A program made the position numbers and the translations under genes. Below the pieces are notes generated by a model. That model searched no databases. It had not been told where the DNA came from and saw only the letters and a program-made list of their open reading frames with translations. From Halorussus ruber (GTDB lineage: Archaea > Halobacteriota > Halobacteria > Halobacteriales > Haladaptataceae), in assembly GCF_004765785.1 (NCBI RefSeq), contig NZ_SBIT01000007.1, positions 62,001 to 126,000 on the forward strand: DNA of 64,000 bases, read 5' to 3'. Below, piece by piece: positions 38,565 through 53,776 of this stretch; the first letter of the stretch is position 1; every line of letters starts with the position of its first letter.

Positions 38565-40247
38565 ATGTTTGACTCGGACGACCTCGAGGAGATACGCGAG
38601 GCCCGCGAGGAGTGGGACGAGGAGACCGTCGGCCCCACCGTCGAGCGCTTCGGCGAGCGCAAAGAGGAGTTCACGACCGACACGGGCGGCCAAGAGGTAG
38701 ACCGCATCTACACGCCCAACGACGTGGCGGACTTGGACTACGACGAGGACCTCGGCTTCCCCGGCGAGGAACCCTACACGCGCGGGGTGTACTCCACGAT
38801 GCACCGCGGGCGGCTCTGGACCATGCGCCAGTACGCCGGGTTCGGCACGCCCGAGGAGACCAACGAGCGATTCGAGTACCTCATCGAGAACGGGTCGTCG
38901 GGCCTCTCGATGGCGTTCGACCTGCCGACCCAGATGGGCTACGACTCCGACGCCGACATGGCGGCGGGCGAGGTCGGCAAGTCCGGCGTCGCCATCGACT
39001 CGCTCCACGACATGGAGACGGTCTTCGACGGGATTCCGCTGGACGAGGTCAGCACGTCGATGACAATCAACGCGCCAGCCTCGGTCCTGCTGGCGATGTA
39101 CATCGCGGTCGGCGACAAGCAGGGCGTCGACAGGGAGGAGCTTCGGGGCACCATCCAGAACGACCTCCTGAAGGAGTACGTCGCGCGAAACACCTACATC
39201 TACCCGCCGGAACCCTCGATGCGCATCATCACCGACATCTTCGAGTTCTGCGCCGACGAGACCCCGAAGTTCAACACCATCTCCATCTCGGGGTACCACA
39301 TCCGCGAGGCCGGAGCGACCGCGGCACAGGAACTCGCGTTCACGCTCGGGAACGGCATCGAGTACGTCGAGGCCGCGATGGACGCCGGACTCGACGTGGA
39401 CGACTTCGCGCCCCAACTCTCGTTCTTCTTCAACGCGCACAACAACATCCTCGAAGAGGTCGCCAAATTCCGCGCGGCCCGCCGGATGTGGGCCAAAATC
39501 ATGGAGGAGCGATTCGACGCCCAGAACCCCAAGTCCAAGCAACTCAAGTTCCACACCCAGACCGCGGGGTCGACCCTGACCGCCCAGCAAGTGGACAACA
39601 ACATCGTCCGAGTCGCGTATCAGGCCCTCGCCGCGGTGCTGGGCGGCACCCAGAGCCTCCACACCAACGGGAAGGACGAAGCCCTCGCGCTCCCGACCGA
39701 GGAGAGCGTCCGGACCGCCCTCCGGACCCAGCAGATTCTGGCCCACGAGTCGGGCGCGGCCGACACCATCGACCCCCTCGCCGGGAGCTACTACATCGAG
39801 AGCCTGACCGACGACGTCGAGGACGAGGCCTTCGACATCCTCGACACGGTCGACGAGAAGGGCGGCATGTTGCAGGCCATCGAGGACCAGTGGGTCCAGC
39901 GACAGATTCAGGACGTGGCCTACGAGCGCCAGCGCGAAATCGAGGAGAAAGAGCGCATCATCGTCGGCGTCAACGAGTTCGAGGTCGACGAGGAGCCCGA
40001 GGTGGACATTCAGGAGGTCACCGAGGAGGAAGAACAGAAGCAGATAGACCGCCTGAACGCGGTCAAGGACGACCGCGACGACGAGGAGGTCGAGGCCAAA
40101 CTCGACGCGCTCCGCGAGGCCGCCGAGGGCGACGAGAACCTGCTGCCCTACATCATCGACGCGGTGAAGGCCTACGCGACGGTCGGCGAAATCTGCGGCG
40201 TCTTCCGCGACACCTTCGGCGAGTACCGGCCCGGCGCGGCGGTGTAG
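38565..40247 (+). CDS. mcmA1: Methylmalonyl-CoA mutase, large (catalytic) subunit
   Basis: 560 residues. It carries the mutase TIM-barrel: [20 protein letters not shown] and [18 protein letters not shown] near residues 86-128, [19 protein letters not shown] near 242-260, and [18 protein letters not shown] near 368-385. As in other archaea the cobalamin-binding domain is on a separate subunit, not in this window. It rearranges methylmalonyl-CoA to succinyl-CoA with adenosylcobalamin. Its last 96 bp are repeated exactly 2,431 bp downstream, and the epimerase partner lies at 45272. Confidence 0.95.
40151..40246 (+). repeat. First copy of a 96-bp exact direct repeat (mcmA 3' end)
   Basis: Bases 40151-40246 are identical to 42582-42677. 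The block encodes the end of the mutase ([18 protein letters not shown]...) up to the first two bases of the stop codon. Together the copies bracket the AT-richer islet. Confidence 0.95.
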
Positions 40248-40424: not shown

Positions 40425-40841
40425 ATGTGGATAAACGAACGATTAGCACATCGAAGTACGGAATCTTTGATTTTCTTGTGTCTCTGTGTGAGCGTTGCAC
40501 TCACGGTCATGTATATCGGCACGTGGAGTTTTGTCGGCCAAGGCAACTATCTGTTCCTGATACTTGGAACCTATGCAATTCTTGCCGTTTTCCTAGTATT
40601 ACAGCTATTCCGAGCCACACGTATGGATGAGTGGTCAGCCAGACTCGGTTCAGTCGGAGTCGTTATCGGATTCGCCACGACTATTTTTCTCGGTCTTCGT
40701 CCAAGACCAGCGTGCTTGGATGTAAGTCCGTGTTTAAGTGGTCTTAGTCCGCATCTCTTCCAGTTGGCGTTCGGAATCGGTGTTGTGACGATTTCGCTGT
40801 TCTTGGACCTTCGGGACAGTATGACCGGGGGTAAATTGTAA
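40425..40841 (+). CDS. Small multi-pass membrane protein of the islet
   Basis: 138 residues with three or four hydrophobic segments: LIFLCLCVSVALTVMYIGTW, YLFLILGTYAILAVFLVLQL, LGSVGVVIGFATTIFLGL and LFQLAFGIGVVTISLFLDL. Two cysteines (ACLDVSPCLSG) lie in the loop before the last helix. GC content is visibly lower than in the flanking genes. No family is recognised. It is the only plus-strand gene of the islet between the two mcmA 3' ends. Confidence 0.6.
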   Translation: MWINERLAHRSTESLIFLCLCVSVALTVMYIGTWSFVGQGNYLFLILGTYAILAVFLVLQLFRATRMDEWSARLGSVGVVIGFATTIFLGLRPRPACLDVSPCLSGLSPHLFQLAFGIGVVTISLFLDLRDSMTGGKL

Positions 40842-40931
40842 GTTGCTCTGCCTTCTAAACTGTGTAGTAAAGGCTAGTTTCGGAAGAAAAAGCCGACTTG
40901 AACGAAAGGAGTTCTGTGCGAAATCTCGTTG

Positions 40932-41678
40932 CTATTCCTGTGCTACGTCCCCTATCAATAGCTTCTCGATCTCAAGTCTTCCATGATTTCGCACATGAAC
41001 CTCCGGAACTGCATCAACCTCGAAATGCACCGGTTCTGTTGGCGGGGATTCACCGGAAGACGGCACGCCGCTATGTTGTCTAGTTGAGTCTGCATCCATT
41101 AATCGTTGCGCGGTTAATTTCGCCGCCTTACTGCGGAAGCGATGACTGTTCGCCTGTTGCGTTCCGATATTGGCCGACTCGTTCAATACGATGCCATCCC
41201 CGCTTTTTCTGAGTTGAACCGCTGGGCTCCGTATTTCTCTATCCAAGGTGAGAGAATCCACCTGTCGCGCTCCAAGTTCTGGATTCAGACGAAGGTATTT
41301 CTCCGTTTCTCCCCACATTTTTCGAGAGAAAGGCTTAATACCATCAGATATCACGACTACATTCCTATCTTCGACTATTTTTACTTCTTGTTTGGAAGCA
41401 GTGGGAGTCAGTTGGAGACGGTTGCCCCCGACGTGATAGGAAGGAGGTGAACACGTCGCACTGAGCGGCGGGATGAGATCGTCACCGTTTGGTATTCCGT
41501 CTGGAAGTCTATACCCCGTCTTTACTTCTAAGACAAGCGGCTTACCACCGTTAGATTCGGAGCGAACAGTTTCACTGAAGACGACTGGACCGGCTGCTGC
41601 TCCGGCCGTCTTAAGGAAGCTTCGCCGACTTGTCAAACTATCCGTCTCTGCTTCATCTTTGCGATTGTTGTTGTCCAT
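40932..41678 (-). CDS. Tat-exported protein of unknown function (islet)
   Basis: 248 residues from ATG 41678. The leader DSLTSRRSFLKTAGAAAGPV is a twin-arginine signal. The mature part has no motif I know; it contains scattered hydrophobic strands and two close Gly/Pro-rich stretches (TGYRLPDGIPNGDDLIPPLS). It begins 4 bp after the stop of the upstream protease-like gene, so the two form an operon. An alternative ATG at 41714 would overlap that gene by 32 bp. Confidence 0.62.
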   Translation of the reverse strand: MDNNNRKDEAETDSLTSRRSFLKTAGAAAGPVVFSETVRSESNGGKPLVLEVKTGYRLPDGIPNGDDLIPPLSATCSPPSYHVGGNRLQLTPTASKQEVKIVEDRNVVVISDGIKPFSRKMWGETEKYLRLNPELGARQVDSLTLDREIRSPAVQLRKSGDGIVLNESANIGTQQANSHRFRSKAAKLTAQRLMDADSTRQHSGVPSSGESPPTEPVHFEVDAVPEVHVRNHGRLEIEKLLIGDVAQE

Positions 41679-41682
41679 TTTA

Positions 41683-42411
41683 TTACTTAAGAGTGTTAAT
41701 AGTTTCTTTGACACCCGTTTTCGTACAAGAAGTCAGCGTTTCGTTGTAGACACCAGAAACATTAGGGTAGTCTGTTGCACAGCCGTCATTTAACTCACCG
41801 TCGTGACGTCCGTGAGTGTCTTCATAGCTCGTACAGAGAGGACTTGAGTCACCGGCTCCACTCAGAATAGTACCGAGGTCGTGCTGTCTGTGGCCTCCAT
41901 TATTATAGTGCTCAGACATCTTTCTGACCGCAGTGTTATCGGAGTCGATAATGGTGTGTAATGCCTCGTGCGACGAAGCATTTCGAATCCACGGTCGAAT
42001 GGAGCCGCAACCCAGAATTGTACACCGGTCGTTCACGAGTGCGCTTCCACTTTCTGACGTTGGTACTTCCGCATTCCCCGAGGCAAACCCTGCGGCTGCG
42101 AGGAAATGGACGCCGTTCCATGAAATGCCCTGATTATCAAGCCAACTTCGGAAATTGGTTCTGTAGTCCTTTGCACCATTACCGTCAATGTGCGGGTGAC
42201 TGTAATCGATGAGTATTTCCGCGTAGTCAATTATCCCATTATTCACTAGTTGGTCGGCCATCCCCTTCAAACCTAGGTACACGTCGTTTTTCTTAGCGCT
42301 TTTTTCGCACAGCGAATCCTGTACACTAGTATTGGGGTATTCATAAATACTCAAATTGCGATACTCATTCGATGAAAGACTTCCAGTACTGTATTCTTCT
42401 ACGTATCCCAT
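41683..42411 (-). CDS. Putative zinc metalloprotease (HExxH, islet)
   Basis: 242 residues. SSHEALHTIIDSDN (near residues 147-160) carries the HExxH zinc motif of zincins, and SEHYNNGGHRQHDLG about 25 residues later offers further histidines as a third ligand. No signal peptide is seen. A TATA box lies about 32 nt before the ATG, so the gene is complete and not a 5' truncation. The gene is AT-rich. It is co-transcribed with the Tat-exported protein, which may be its substrate, inhibitor or partner; this is inference. Confidence 0.6.
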   Translation of the reverse strand: MGYVEEYSTGSLSSNEYRNLSIYEYPNTSVQDSLCEKSAKKNDVYLGLKGMADQLVNNGIIDYAEILIDYSHPHIDGNGAKDYRTNFRSWLDNQGISWNGVHFLAAAGFASGNAEVPTSESGSALVNDRCTILGCGSIRPWIRNASSHEALHTIIDSDNTAVRKMSEHYNNGGHRQHDLGTILSGAGDSSPLCTSYEDTHGRHDGELNDGCATDYPNVSGVYNETLTSCTKTGVKETINTLK

Positions 42412-42437
42412 CGCAATTTACACCTTGCCACCCCCAT

Positions 42438-42447
42438 ACTATAAACT
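42438..42447 (-). promoter_or_regulatory. TATA box of the islet protease operon
   Basis: On the minus strand AGTTTATAGT lies about 32 nt upstream of the ATG at 42411, followed by a GGGGGTGG run that may aid ribosome binding. Confidence 0.6.
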
Positions 42448-42532
42448 TTCTGCCTAGCTTATACTAATCATATCAAAGGCGAGAATAATCTGCCCGGTTG
42501 AACGACTGAAGTGAGCGAACAAGAAAGTTGGG

Positions 42533-42678
42533 GAGGATGAGGCGCTGGTGCCCTCCACCGAAGAGAGCGGGAACAAGAGCGCATCATCGACGCGGTGAAG
42601 GCCTACGCGACGGTCGGCGAAATCTGCGGCGTCTTCCGCGACACCTTCGGCGAGTACCGGCCCGGCGCGGCGGTGTAA
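42533..42678 (+). pseudogene. Decayed partial copy of mcmA (second 3' end)
   Basis: Three mcmA pieces are joined. First comes GEDEAL..STEES (42533-42570), compare [13 protein letters not shown] in the intact gene. Then AAGAGCGCATCATCG (42575-42589) matches 39949-39963. Then come the 96 bp identical to 40151-40246 with stop TAA at 42676-42678. The join between the second and third pieces falls on CATCATCG, present at both places in mcmA, which suggests a deletion by short direct repeats. Confidence 0.8.
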
Positions 42679-42699: not shown

Positions 42700-43290
42700 T
42701 CAGGCCGCCTCTTTCAGTTCCTCGTATCGCTCCCGAAACAGCGACTCGCAGGACGTGCAACACATGTGGTAGCGCCGGTCGTCCATCTCGACGGTGACGC
42801 CGCCCTCGTGAACCGGCTTGCCGCACTCGGCGCATTCGAGCGCGAGGTCCGCGCCGTCCACGTTCGGTTGCCACGACGACTCGGCCACCTTCCGAATCGC
42901 GTAGTCTTCGAGGGAGTCAGGGTCGAGGGCCTCCTCGAAGAGGTGGCGGAGTTCCCGGTCGTCCATGTGGCCGTAGGCGACGATTCGCGGGTCGATGGCC
43001 CGGACGACGTGTTCCACGAAGTCGAACTCCCGGAGCGTCTCGGCCACCTCGTCGCCGCTCCCCGGCCGGGCGTCGATTTCGAGGACTACTTCGTCGCCGG
43101 TCGCCAGCACCGAGCGGTCCAAGTCCAGCGTGAACCCCCGAATCACGCCGAGTTCTTCGAGTCGCTCGACGCGGTTCGAGACGCTCGGGGCCGACAGGCC
43201 CACCTCCTCGCCGATTTCCTTGTAGGAGCGCCGGGCGTCCTCCATCAGCAGTTGGAGGATTTCGGTGTCCGTGTCGTCGAGTTCGGTCAT
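42700..43290 (-). CDS. Lrp/AsnC-type regulator with TRASH metal-binding domain
   Basis: 196 residues from ATG 43290 (MTELDDTDTEILQLLMED). The N-terminal AsnC helix-turn-helix is DARRSYKEIGEEVGLSAPSV and SNRVERLEELGVIRGF, then a ligand-binding-like region. The C-terminus has CAECGKPVH...YHMCCTSCESLF, a TRASH domain expected to bind a metal. A haloarchaeal protein of this layout (VNG1179C) is linked to copper efflux. No copper ATPase or chaperone is adjacent here. It lies between the second and third mcmA 3' ends. Confidence 0.87.
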   Translation of the reverse strand: MTELDDTDTEILQLLMEDARRSYKEIGEEVGLSAPSVSNRVERLEELGVIRGFTLDLDRSVLATGDEVVLEIDARPGSGDEVAETLREFDFVEHVVRAIDPRIVAYGHMDDRELRHLFEEALDPDSLEDYAIRKVAESSWQPNVDGADLALECAECGKPVHEGGVTVEMDDRRYHMCCTSCESLFRERYEELKEAA

Positions 43291-43544
43291 TAGAGCGTGT
43301 ACACCCTCCAGCTGTAACAGTCTTTTCGGGGTTTCGAGAACCTCGCGCGAGGGTTCCCGACGAGTGCGAACAGCACGACCCGACAACTGTCAGGTCTGCG
43401 CCGAGGTGCTTCGGGAGTGCGCCGAGAGTTGCCGGACGATGGCGAGCGCCTAAGCGGTCCCCGAATCAGCGTTCCGTTCTTGCTTCTTCTCAGAGCCGAC
43501 TGACCAGTTCGCCCACTTCGCCTCGAGTGTTAGTGAGTCAAACG
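43291..43544. other. Gene-free stretch upstream of the Lrp-TRASH gene
   Basis: About 250 bp of normal GC with no supported ORF. It must hold the promoter of the Lrp-TRASH gene; I see only a weak candidate (CTGTTACAGCTGGAG on the minus strand near 43305-43320, including a CAGCTG palindrome). Confidence 0.35.
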
Positions 43545-43613
43545 ACGGTCGGCAAAATCTGCGACGTCTTCCGCGACGTGTCCGAGGAGTACAAGTCCGG
43601 CGCGGCGGTCTGA
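43545..43613 (+). pseudogene. Third, diverged copy of the mcmA 3' end
   Basis: The 22 codons read TVGKICDVFRDVSEEYKSGA then AV and a TGA stop, against [20 protein letters not shown] then AV in the intact mutase. DNA identity is high at the start and falls to the end. No mcmA sequence is recognisable upstream. It is older than the second copy, or derives from another mutase paralogue. Confidence 0.75.
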
Positions 43614-43897: not shown

Positions 43898-45019
43898 TCA
43901 CAGATACCCGGCTAGTTCGTCCACGTCGTCCTCGGTATTGAAGACGTGAATCGACGCCCGGACCGCGTTCTCGGGGTAGGGAAGCGCCCGAATCTGAATC
44001 CCGTCGTCGGCCAACTCCTCCACGAACGCCTCGGGATTAGGGTCGTCCACGGCGAACGTGACGAGGCCCGACTCGTACTCGCGGGGACTCAGCAGCCGAG
44101 CAGACTCGGCGTCCGCGATGCCCACCTTGAGTCGGTCGGTCAGGTTCTCGATTCGGCGCTGAATCGCGTCGTAGCCCACGTCCTCGATGGTTCGGATGGC
44201 CTCGGCGAGTCCAGCGTAGGGCGCGGGCGAGACGGTGCCGACCTCCAGTCGGTGCGCGCCGGGTTCGTAGGCGTACTCCTCGGCGTTGGGGTCCTCGACG
44301 CTCCGGTAGCCGATGTGGGCCGGTTCGAGGAGGTCCTCCGCGCCGGGGCTGACGTGGACGAACCCCGCGCCGAAGGGGCCGAGGAGCCACTTGTGGCCCG
44401 CGCCCGCCGCGAAGTCCGCGCCCCACTCCGAGAGGTCGAGGGGCATCTGGCCGGGCGACTGCACGGCGTCGGCGAGGACGAGCGCGCCAGCGTCGTGGGC
44501 GATTTCCGAGACCTCCTCGACCGGGAGGCGCGTGCCGTGAGTCCACGTCAGCGAACTCATGCAGACGAGTTTGGCGTCCTGTACCGCGTCGGCCATCGCG
44601 TCCATGTCGAGGCGGCCCTCCTCGGTCTCGACCACCTCGACCTCGACGCCGTGGCGCTTCAGGCGCTTCCACGGCAGGATGCCCGAGGAGTGTTCGAGGT
44701 CGGTCCGGACCACGGTGTCGCCGGGTTCCCAGTCGAGCGCGGCCGCGACGCGATTGATGCCGTCGGTGGTACTCTGGGTCAGCGCGATTTCGCTCGCGTC
44801 CACGCCGAAGTGGCCCGCGAGCGTCTCGCGCGTCTCGTCGAAGACGCCGAACGCGCAGGAGTACATCCCCTCCTCGGCGGGCGCGTCGTACTCGTGGCGC
44901 TCGACGCACTCCTCGACGGCCTCGACGACGCGAGTCGGACTCGGTCCCGAGGCTCCGGTGTTCATGTAGGTCGTGCCGTCGAGCGCGGGAATCGCGTCCC
45001 TGAGGTCGGTCGGGTTCAT
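43898..45019 (-). CDS. PLP-dependent aminotransferase, class V (cysteine desulfurase-like fold)
   Basis: 373 residues from ATG 45019 (MNPTDLRDAIPALDGTTYMN). Class V landmarks are YMNTGASGPSPTRVVEA, ALTQSTTDGINRVAAAL, RTDLEHSSGILPW, ADAVQSPGQMPLDL and the PLP-binding lysine in AAGAGHKWLLGPFGAGF near residue 213. No conserved catalytic cysteine loop of NifS/SufS is seen, so a desulfurase role is doubtful; isopenicillin-epimerase-like or kynureninase-like proteins are similar. Confidence 0.83.
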   Translation of the reverse strand: MNPTDLRDAIPALDGTTYMNTGASGPSPTRVVEAVEECVERHEYDAPAEEGMYSCAFGVFDETRETLAGHFGVDASEIALTQSTTDGINRVAAALDWEPGDTVVRTDLEHSSGILPWKRLKRHGVEVEVVETEEGRLDMDAMADAVQDAKLVCMSSLTWTHGTRLPVEEVSEIAHDAGALVLADAVQSPGQMPLDLSEWGADFAAGAGHKWLLGPFGAGFVHVSPGAEDLLEPAHIGYRSVEDPNAEEYAYEPGAHRLEVGTVSPAPYAGLAEAIRTIEDVGYDAIQRRIENLTDRLKVGIADAESARLLSPREYESGLVTFAVDDPNPEAFVEELADDGIQIRALPYPENAVRASIHVFNTEDDVDELAGYL

Positions 45020-52395: not shown

Positions 52396-52518
52396 GTTGG
52401 GTGTTACCACTCCTTTCCGTATAAGCGTCGGGCCGCCCTCCTCGACTTTTTACCGGAAGACGAGACAAAGCCAGCCCATGTCGAGAGCGTGTTGGACAGT
52501 TTCGACCGGAGGAAGGCG

Positions 52519-53157
52519 ATGAAGGAAGACGACGAGCAGGACGACCTCGACGTTCGCGCGTCGGTCGATTCCTTCCGAAGGGCGGGAGTGGCGGCGAGTG
52601 ACGGCCTCGGGAGACTCTACGAGGCGGGTAGAATGTGGCTCGGTAGACGCCACTCGCTCGTCCGATTCGTTGCTGCGACAGCAATCTGGTTCGTCGGAAA
52701 CTGGACGTACAACCGTATCGCTTCGCCGATTATCGGTACGGCAACGAAGATACTCGGTCAAATTTCCTCGGAACTCGCAGTCACACCCGCTGTCGCATTC
52801 CTCGAAGGAAACCCGATTTTCGCGTCGTTACAACTTCTAGTGATTCTCATCGCGGTCGTCGTGGCACAGAATAGAAGACATACCCAGAAACTTAAGGACT
52901 CCGAGGATAAATTGACTAATATGACTAACGGGTCGGAGGAGATTACGGACGGCGGGAGCCGAAAACTACCGCCGACAGGCCCGCGGGCAATCGGTGGGCT
53001 GATAGCCGGTGGTGCCATCGGCCTCAGCTTCGGGCCGGGTGGTGTTCTCGCAGGGATGTTTCTCGGCTTCGCGTGGGGCGACAAACTCGACATCCGAGCC
53101 TACGAACGCAACCCGAACACCCCCGAACTGAACCGCGAATCCAATACTGAGCAATAA
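52519..53157 (+). CDS. Membrane protein with two helices and a glycine-zipper region
   Basis: About 212 residues from ATG 52519; a GTG at 52489 is the other candidate start. Hydrophobic stretches are SLVRFVAATAIWFVGNWTY near residue 47 and FASLQLLVILIAVVVAQ near 93, then a glycine-zipper helix pair IGGLIAGGAIGLSFGPGGVL followed by AGMFLGFAWG near 155-185. The N-terminus is acidic. Unknown family. It lies 77 bp upstream of the AT-rich nuclease-like gene on the same strand. Confidence 0.6.
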   Translation: MKEDDEQDDLDVRASVDSFRRAGVAASDGLGRLYEAGRMWLGRRHSLVRFVAATAIWFVGNWTYNRIASPIIGTATKILGQISSELAVTPAVAFLEGNPIFASLQLLVILIAVVVAQNRRHTQKLKDSEDKLTNMTNGSEEITDGGSRKLPPTGPRAIGGLIAGGAIGLSFGPGGVLAGMFLGFAWGDKLDIRAYERNPNTPELNRESNTEQ

Positions 53158-53233
53158 AGAATCGGATCGAAATCATCTAATTCGCAATCAAAGTTTATTT
53201 TGTGAGCGTTGGTTTTTACTTCTCATAATCTCC

Positions 53234-53776
53234 ATGTTGAATATGGACGATCTACAGGAGCTTTCGATTATAGAGTACGATTTCTCGACTGGAGAGGTCT
53301 GTGAGGTTTCCTCACCTAAAGATATAGAAAACATCGGAGGTCTAGAAAATATGACACCGACCACAACAGAAAGCATCGCCGCAAACATCTACAAGGAAAA
53401 TGGATTTAAAGTAAAAAGACTCCATAATACCTCTAGCACTTTTACAGAGATGCACGAAAGAGGTGAAGAACTGAACGGGTTAATTCAGTTATTAGATGAA
53501 GAAGTTTCGAAAATTGCTACTGAGTTCGGTAACACACATCTTTGGGCCTTGGATAGATCCGGTTGCCCTGATTTACTAGTATATGAAATTAACGAGGACG
53601 GCATAGATTATAAATTTGTAGAAGTAAAATCGACGCCAGCTATACCTGGAGTTAGATCTAGAGATCGTCTTAAACACTCGCAAATCGACTGGATAACGCG
53701 TTTTAACTTTCTCTCAGTTAAAATCGCGTTTGTAGTCAACCCAGCAAATTGGGATGGTTTCCATGAGTTTTCGTAA
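53234..53776 (+). CDS. VRR-NUC-like nuclease (PD-(D/E)xK fold), AT-rich
   Basis: 180 residues. The segment GCPDLLVYEINEDG, then DYKFVEVKSTPA, then LKHSQIDWITRFNF follows the D...ExK...Q pattern of restriction-like VRR-NUC domains, which cut DNA, often at branched structures. The first 70 residues are not recognised. Codon use (AAT, AAA, ATA, TTA) and GC content differ sharply from the flanks, indicating recent transfer. A TTTATT TATA-like site is near 53192-53200. Confidence 0.72.
   Translation: MLNMDDLQELSIIEYDFSTGEVCEVSSPKDIENIGGLENMTPTTTESIAANIYKENGFKVKRLHNTSSTFTEMHERGEELNGLIQLLDEEVSKIATEFGNTHLWALDRSGCPDLLVYEINEDGIDYKFVEVKSTPAIPGVRSRDRLKHSQIDWITRFNFLSVKIAFVVNPANWDGFHEFS

What the first reader, a model, noticed from the sequence alone, without database searches (positions are those of the whole stretch)
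40425..42411. Islet cassette: HExxH protein, Tat-exported partner and small membrane protein
The minus-strand pair is spaced by 4 bp under one TATA box: a leaderless putative zincin (HEALH with later histidines) and a Tat-exported protein with no known domain. A multi-pass membrane protein is encoded divergently. Protease + exported protein + membrane protein on an AT-rich islet is the composition expected of a processed exported peptide, toxin/immunity or surface-modification system. The function is not known and none of the three is recognised.
Basis: inference. Interest (0 to 1): 0.6.

Follow-up and report, generated by a model that had tools for sequence, protein, structure and literature searches.

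The report
Signal-less zincin with Tat export partner
Two side-by-side genes in a salt-loving archaeon appear to make a zinc-protease-like protein that has no export signal of its own and a partner protein that carries the export tag for it; the pairing recurs across many haloarchaea and looks like an unnoticed 'hitchhiker' secretion module.

Summary
The two minus-strand genes are a real, widespread haloarchaeal module; the third gene is not part of it. The HEALH protein (41683-42411) belongs to a haloarchaeal family with no match in Pfam, NCBIfam or the PDB by sequence. Its signature is (H/Q)ExxH ... (E/D)HxLG ... (S/T)PM plus two near-invariant cysteines. Profiles link it to metzincins.

Intact leaderless members sit directly beside a Tat-signal gene in 34 of 35 loci: a member of the window partner's family in 28, another Tat protein in 6. 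Twenty-nine relatives that carry their own Tat signal have no such partner gene (0/29; Fisher p = 8e-12). Fused and split forms interleave on the tree.

Best explanation: the zincin folds in the cytoplasm, binds the partner, and is co-exported through Tat as a hitchhiker, as Streptomyces MelC2 tyrosinase is on MelC1. Metal loading or inhibition by the partner is unshown. Many members have Q or M instead of the first zinc His, so catalysis is not universal.

The membrane gene is convergent, not divergent, and its relatives lie elsewhere without the pair. The islet sits at the mcmA 3' end, flanked by a perfect 96-bp copy of the mcmA tail. Both structure predictions failed; fold and interaction are untested.

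The parts
41683..42411 (-). Zincin-like protein, 242 aa, no signal peptide; HEALH 148-152, H177, S-P-L 190-192 (Met-turn position), C211 and C229 near-invariant in the family
   Evidence: homologues in 86 of 394 order genomes; no Pfam, NCBIfam or PDB sequence match
40932..41678 (-). Tat-exported partner, 248 aa: SRRSFLK signal, then an unknown, probably beta-rich mature part ending in ...AVPEVHVRNHGRLEI
   Evidence: partner-family profile A9
41679..41682 (-). 4-bp spacer between the zincin stop and the partner ATG; -5 to +16 bp in 25 of 26 pairs compared
42436..42446 (-). TATA-like element (TTTATA) about 30 nt upstream of the zincin ATG, likely promoter of the pair
   Evidence: sequence; inference, not tested statistically
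40425..40841 (+). Small membrane protein (138 aa, about four hydrophobic segments by eye) in the same islet but not part of the module
42582..42677 (+). Perfect 96-bp copy of the mcmA 3' tail (original 40151-40246) closing the islet
43543..43609 (+). Second, degraded copy (84%) of the mcmA 3' tail beyond an Lrp/AsnC-type gene; consistent with an older insertion at the same place

Best explanation
The pair is a two-part Tat export module. The HEALH protein is a metzincin-like, extracytoplasmic, probably disulfide-bonded protein that is made without a signal peptide. It folds in the cytoplasm and binds the co-translated partner, whose twin-arginine signal takes the complex through the Tat translocase as a hitchhiker. 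Outside, the zincin acts on proteins of the cell surface or of neighbouring cells. Shown by sequence here: family, motif, adjacency, and the interchange of own signal with partner. Inferred: binding, co-export, zinc, proteolysis, target. A possible further role of the partner is to load metal or to keep the enzyme inactive until export, as MelC1 does for tyrosinase.
For: (1) Intact leaderless members have an immediately adjacent same-strand Tat-signal gene in 34 of 35 loci. It belongs to the window partner's family in 28, and is another Tat protein in 6: short Tat proteins (L013, L016, L076), Tat beta-propellers (L107, L108) and a further one (L118). The base rate of an adjacent Tat gene in these genomes is at most 33/293. 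(2) Relatives with their own Tat signal (L014, L017, L040, L111, L112 and 24 chromosomal members) have no gene of the partner family beside them: 0/29 against 28/35, Fisher p = 8e-12. (3) Fused and paired forms interleave on the tree (5 changes; L004 paired is sister to L017 fused, SH-aLRT 92). (4) L013 and L016 are leaderless yet belong to a protein with PKD and PPC-like domains typical of secreted proteins (L013 tested). (5) Zincins are Cys-rich (mean 2.8% against 0.85% for other genes) with C211/C229 kept. (6) Gene order flips while adjacency stays (L043, L106, L110, L120, L135). (7) Divergence of the two proteins is correlated (26 pairs, Mantel r 0.46, 0/2000 permutations; shared descent is not excluded). 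(8) The partner profile, searched alone, leads to further leaderless zincins, some with canonical metzincin signatures (HELVHLYGAQH; HELLHIYDATH ... SIMY; one passes Pfam Reprolysin_5, 27.4 against 27.0 bits). (9) The precedent is proven: MelC2 lacks a signal and hitchhikes on the Tat protein MelC1 (PMC2758597).
Against: L119 is leaderless without a same-strand Tat neighbour of a known partner type. Two members of the chromosomal group (L049, L168) show neither a signal nor a partner, perhaps because of wrong starts. Adjacency would also fit an enzyme-inhibitor or enzyme-substrate pair. The first zinc His is Q or M in about 40% of the aligned members, so 'protease' is doubtful for those (not for the window).
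Confidence: 0.66

Rival explanations
1. Secreted toxin and immunity or inhibitor pair: the zincin is an antagonistic protease, and the partner (and/or the neighbouring Tat lipoprotein) protects the producer.
For: Small exported pair on AT-rich islets and plasmids, fast divergence, patchy distribution (86/394). In L113, L114 and L116 the zincin frame is broken while the partner frame is open. H. salinarum NRC-1 and R1 have lost the zincin and the partner's N terminus but keep the lipoprotein.
Against: The partner family is absent from the 29 own-signal members checked, which would also need immunity. The partner itself is lost or truncated in NRC-1, L117 and L075. No toxin or immunity family match.
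Confidence: 0.15
2. Protease and substrate: the zincin processes the exported partner into an active peptide.
For: Adjacent co-directional genes and a conserved C-terminal NHG motif in the partner. A serine-protease/precursor antagonism is known in haloarchaea (PMC12893001).
Against: Partners of unrelated kinds (beta-propeller, short Tat proteins) sit in the same place. Own-signal zincins have no such 'substrate'. The zincin would be left in the cytoplasm. QExxH members keep the partner.
Confidence: 0.08
3. Export pair without catalysis: the zincin fold serves as a binding or surface-structural protein, as a pseudoenzyme.
For: Position 148 varies H/Q/M, with about 7 H/Q changes on the tree.
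Against: E149, H152 and H177 are near-invariant across the family, which is hard to explain without a metal site. The window protein has the full motif. In Volvox VMP3 a QExxH site is active with copper (cited in PMC7717551).
Confidence: 0.2
4. A three-gene cassette that includes the membrane protein 40425-40841.
For: Same AT-rich islet.
Against: Convergent orientation; homologues at unrelated loci in 7 genomes; not found beside other pairs.
Confidence: 0.03

Closest known systems
MelC1/MelC2 (Streptomyces tyrosinase and its Tat 'caddie')
   Same: Bicistronic pair, metalloprotein without a signal, small partner with the Tat signal, translationally close genes
   Different: Unrelated proteins; the cargo here is zincin-like, not a copper oxidase; gene order is usually cargo first; archaeal; metal loading not shown
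Tat hitchhiker complexes (Ni-Fe hydrogenases, formate dehydrogenases)
   Same: One subunit carries the twin-arginine signal for the other
   Different: No redox cofactors; the cargo resembles a peptidase
Metzincins (Pfam Reprolysin_2/3/5, M12-like)
   Same: HExxH, a later His and a Met-turn-like (S/T)PM; similarity to partner-linked HExxHxxGxxH proteins by profile (prob. 67%, E 5e-5)
   Different: Third His about 25 residues downstream instead of 6; no Pfam hit for the window protein; first His replaceable by Gln
Volvox VMP3 (QExxH metalloproteinase)
   Same: Natural His-to-Gln change at the first metal ligand
   Different: No evidence of homology or of copper here
Chromosomal Tat zincins found here (L044-L048, L161-L180; mostly one other family of the order)
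   Same: Same family by profile (98.9%, E 4e-17)
   Different: Own Tat signal, no partner, HExxH intact in those read

Membership tests
Haloarchaeal (H/Q)ExxH zincin-like family defined here | Invariant E149, H152, H177, G180 and near-invariant G100, H102, C211 in a ~230-aa domain | tested here: met
Metzincin clan | HExxHxxGxxH/D motif | tested here: not met
   window has HEALHTIIDSD..., next conserved His 25 residues later
Metzincin clan | Met-turn after the active-site helix | tested here: inconclusive
   (S/T)PM in most members, SPL in the window
Metzincin clan | Sequence or profile similarity to metzincins | tested here: inconclusive
   no Pfam hit for the window protein; hhalign 67%, E 5e-5 to partner-linked metzincins
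Metzincin clan | Zincin fold with a metal site | tested here: inconclusive
   AlphaFold2 pLDDT 38.7 and Foldseek E > 0.3, uninformative
Tat hitchhiker pair | Cargo lacks a signal, partner has a twin-arginine signal | tested here: met
Tat hitchhiker pair | Genes linked across genomes, own signal and partner interchangeable | tested here: met
Tat hitchhiker pair | Export of the cargo depends on binding the partner | not testable with these tools
   needs fractionation in a haloarchaeon
MelC1 family | Sequence membership in the tyrosinase-cofactor family | tested here: not met
   Pfam and NCBIfam find only the Tat signal and a weak, irrelevant match in the partner
Toxin/immunity pair | Toxicity of one gene relieved by the other | not testable with these tools
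   needs expression tests

The most novel reading that the evidence does not exclude
A family of archaeal Tat 'caddie' proteins that both export and metallate (or hold inactive) zincin-type proteases, whose metal site has switched repeatedly between HExxH (zinc) and QExxH (perhaps copper).
Probability: 0.15. Interest if true: 0.8.

Novelty: new variant of a known kind. Interest (0 to 1): 0.56.

Why it matters
Signal-peptide predictors would call the zincin cytoplasmic. If it is co-exported, haloarchaeal secretomes miss a whole class of extracellular protease-like proteins, and the partner gives a simple handle to find them. The natural fused and split versions make Tat hitchhiking directly testable in Haloferax, and the H/Q switch offers a natural series for metal selectivity in zincins.

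Tried and rejected
PDB and Pfam/NCBIfam searches of the window proteins: no family. Phage and viral collections: no relatives. Pattern scans of genome contigs: two relatives only. Membrane protein as a module member: rejected. Halocin C8-like immunity was considered, but no family hit supports it; halocin H4 was not tested. tRNA, Rfam and sigma-70-type or terminator-like signals at the site: none, or no more than chance.

Full report
What is there. The zincin-like gene and the partner gene are co-directional with 4 bp between them. The membrane gene is on the + strand and convergent with the partner, not divergent. The islet (about 40.25-42.58 kb) is about 50% G+C in a 65% G+C window.

Where it sits. 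It lies directly after the mcmA 3' end (methylmalonyl-CoA mutase). In 14 of the 16 same-genus genomes compared, mcmA is followed closely by the class V aminotransferase gene whose 3' end lies at 43898 in the window; the short flanks of the other two did not show it. The islet ends with a perfect 96-bp copy of the mcmA tail (42582-42677). A second, 84% copy lies at 43543-43609 beyond an Lrp-type gene. Extra tail copies were not detected in the 1.5 kb downstream of mcmA in the relatives, although one search gave a 40-bp partial match in G020. This fits two insertions at one site, with the younger next to the gene; the enzyme is unknown and no integrase gene was seen in the islet. A region at 42526-42569 reads [11 protein letters not shown], resembling an internal mcmA segment, so recombination with a divergent mcmA is also possible.

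The zincin family. The window protein has no Pfam, NCBIfam or PDB sequence match. BLAST-type and profile searches found relatives in 16 and then 86 of 394 genomes of the order. In a further draw of 295 genomes from the phylum, all 10 genomes with a match belonged to the same order. In 41 aligned members E149 is kept in 40, H152 and H177 in 41, G180 in 40, C211 in 40 of 40; position 148 is H, Q or M. On a tree of 51 members (quick method, many weak forks) H/Q needs about seven changes and own-signal/paired five. The closest relative found (44.5% identity) is on a 355-kb plasmid of Halobacterium salinarum KBTZ03, again followed by a partner.

The partner. The partner family has a Tat signal, a poorly conserved, Cys-poor mature part and a C-terminal tPxvxvRNHGxLxV stretch. 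Searching with the mature part alone recovered the known pairs and new ones. In these new pairs the neighbour is again a leaderless zincin, including distant members with canonical metzincin signatures (L141, L144, L146, L149). Profile comparison links these to the window family (67%, E 5e-5). Partners without a visible zincin are few and are fragments, at contig ends or unclear (L152-L155, L158).

The test that matters. Loci were classed by script, with the cases that the script's motif filter missed settled by reading the sequence; the counts are therefore partly curated. Intact leaderless zincins: 35 loci, 28 beside the partner family, 6 beside another Tat-signal protein, 1 without (L119). 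Zincins with their own Tat signal: 29, none beside the partner family. Two further members of the chromosomal group (L049, L168) lack both and were left out. Fisher p = 8e-12. The loci are not fully independent (L011/L012 and L013/L016 are close pairs), which weakens the p-value but not the pattern. L013, a leaderless member, carries PKD and PPC-like domains, which belong outside the cell; L016 is nearly identical.

How it most likely works. The simplest reading is hitchhiker export: the partner brings the Tat signal, the zincin the activity. MelC2 tyrosinase, which lacks a signal and is secreted in complex with the Tat protein MelC1, is the proven model (PMC2758597); hydrogenases and formate dehydrogenases do the same (PMC10924467). 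Whether the partner also loads metal or blocks the site is open. Proteolysis is plausible for the window protein because its motif is complete. It is uncertain for Q members, although a QExxH enzyme from Volvox is reported to work with copper (PMC7717551).

What is not in the module. The membrane protein's homologues lie at other loci, for example near a ferredoxin-like and a rhodanese-like gene (names from reading the sequence), without the zincin. Elsewhere a small Tat lipoprotein recurs within 1.3 kb of the pair. The automatic count is 25 of 46 loci against 17 of 84 control genes, and includes some spurious ORFs. More telling, the lipoproteins fall into a few homologous families across distant loci. 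In H. salinarum NRC-1 and R1 the zincin and the partner's N terminus are gone while that lipoprotein stays.

Limits. No structure, no binding and no activity was shown. The two structure jobs were limited to few homologues and failed. 'Not found in the literature' rests on eight searches of open-access papers only.

Noticed in passing
window 40151-40247, 42582-42677, 43543-43609: Three copies of the mcmA 3' tail (100% and 84%), suggesting that the mcmA end was used twice as an insertion site in this genome; in genome G035 (L112) another zincin-family gene also lies directly downstream of an mcmA gene.
   Followed up: partly
L184 3389-4501 (H. salinarum NRC-1 pNRC200), L185: Model strains NRC-1 and R1 carry a remnant: intact Tat lipoprotein (VNG_RS13495), zincin deleted, partner without its signal (VNG_RS13490); strain KBTZ03 has the full set (L060 7526-9421).
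   Followed up: partly
L060, L068, L069, L035, L106, L146; also L070, L037, L080, L113: Small Tat lipoproteins of a few homologous families recur beside the pair and may be its third component.
   Followed up: partly
L113, L114, L116, L075/L051: Zincin frame broken while the partner frame is open in three loci; both damaged in one.
   Followed up: no
L107 1457-2788, L108 1418-2668: Tat-exported proteins that read like PQQ-type beta-propellers replace the usual partner upstream of leaderless zincins.
   Followed up: no
window 52489-53776: Second AT-rich patch (47% G+C at 53-54 kb) with a membrane-protein ORF and a 180-aa ORF that resembles a nuclease-type (VRR-NUC-like) domain by eye only.
   Followed up: no
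window 42700-43293: Lrp/AsnC-type gene lies between two mcmA-tail copies; in same-genus genomes its homologue lies away from mcmA, and this genome has another copy (C4).
   Followed up: partly
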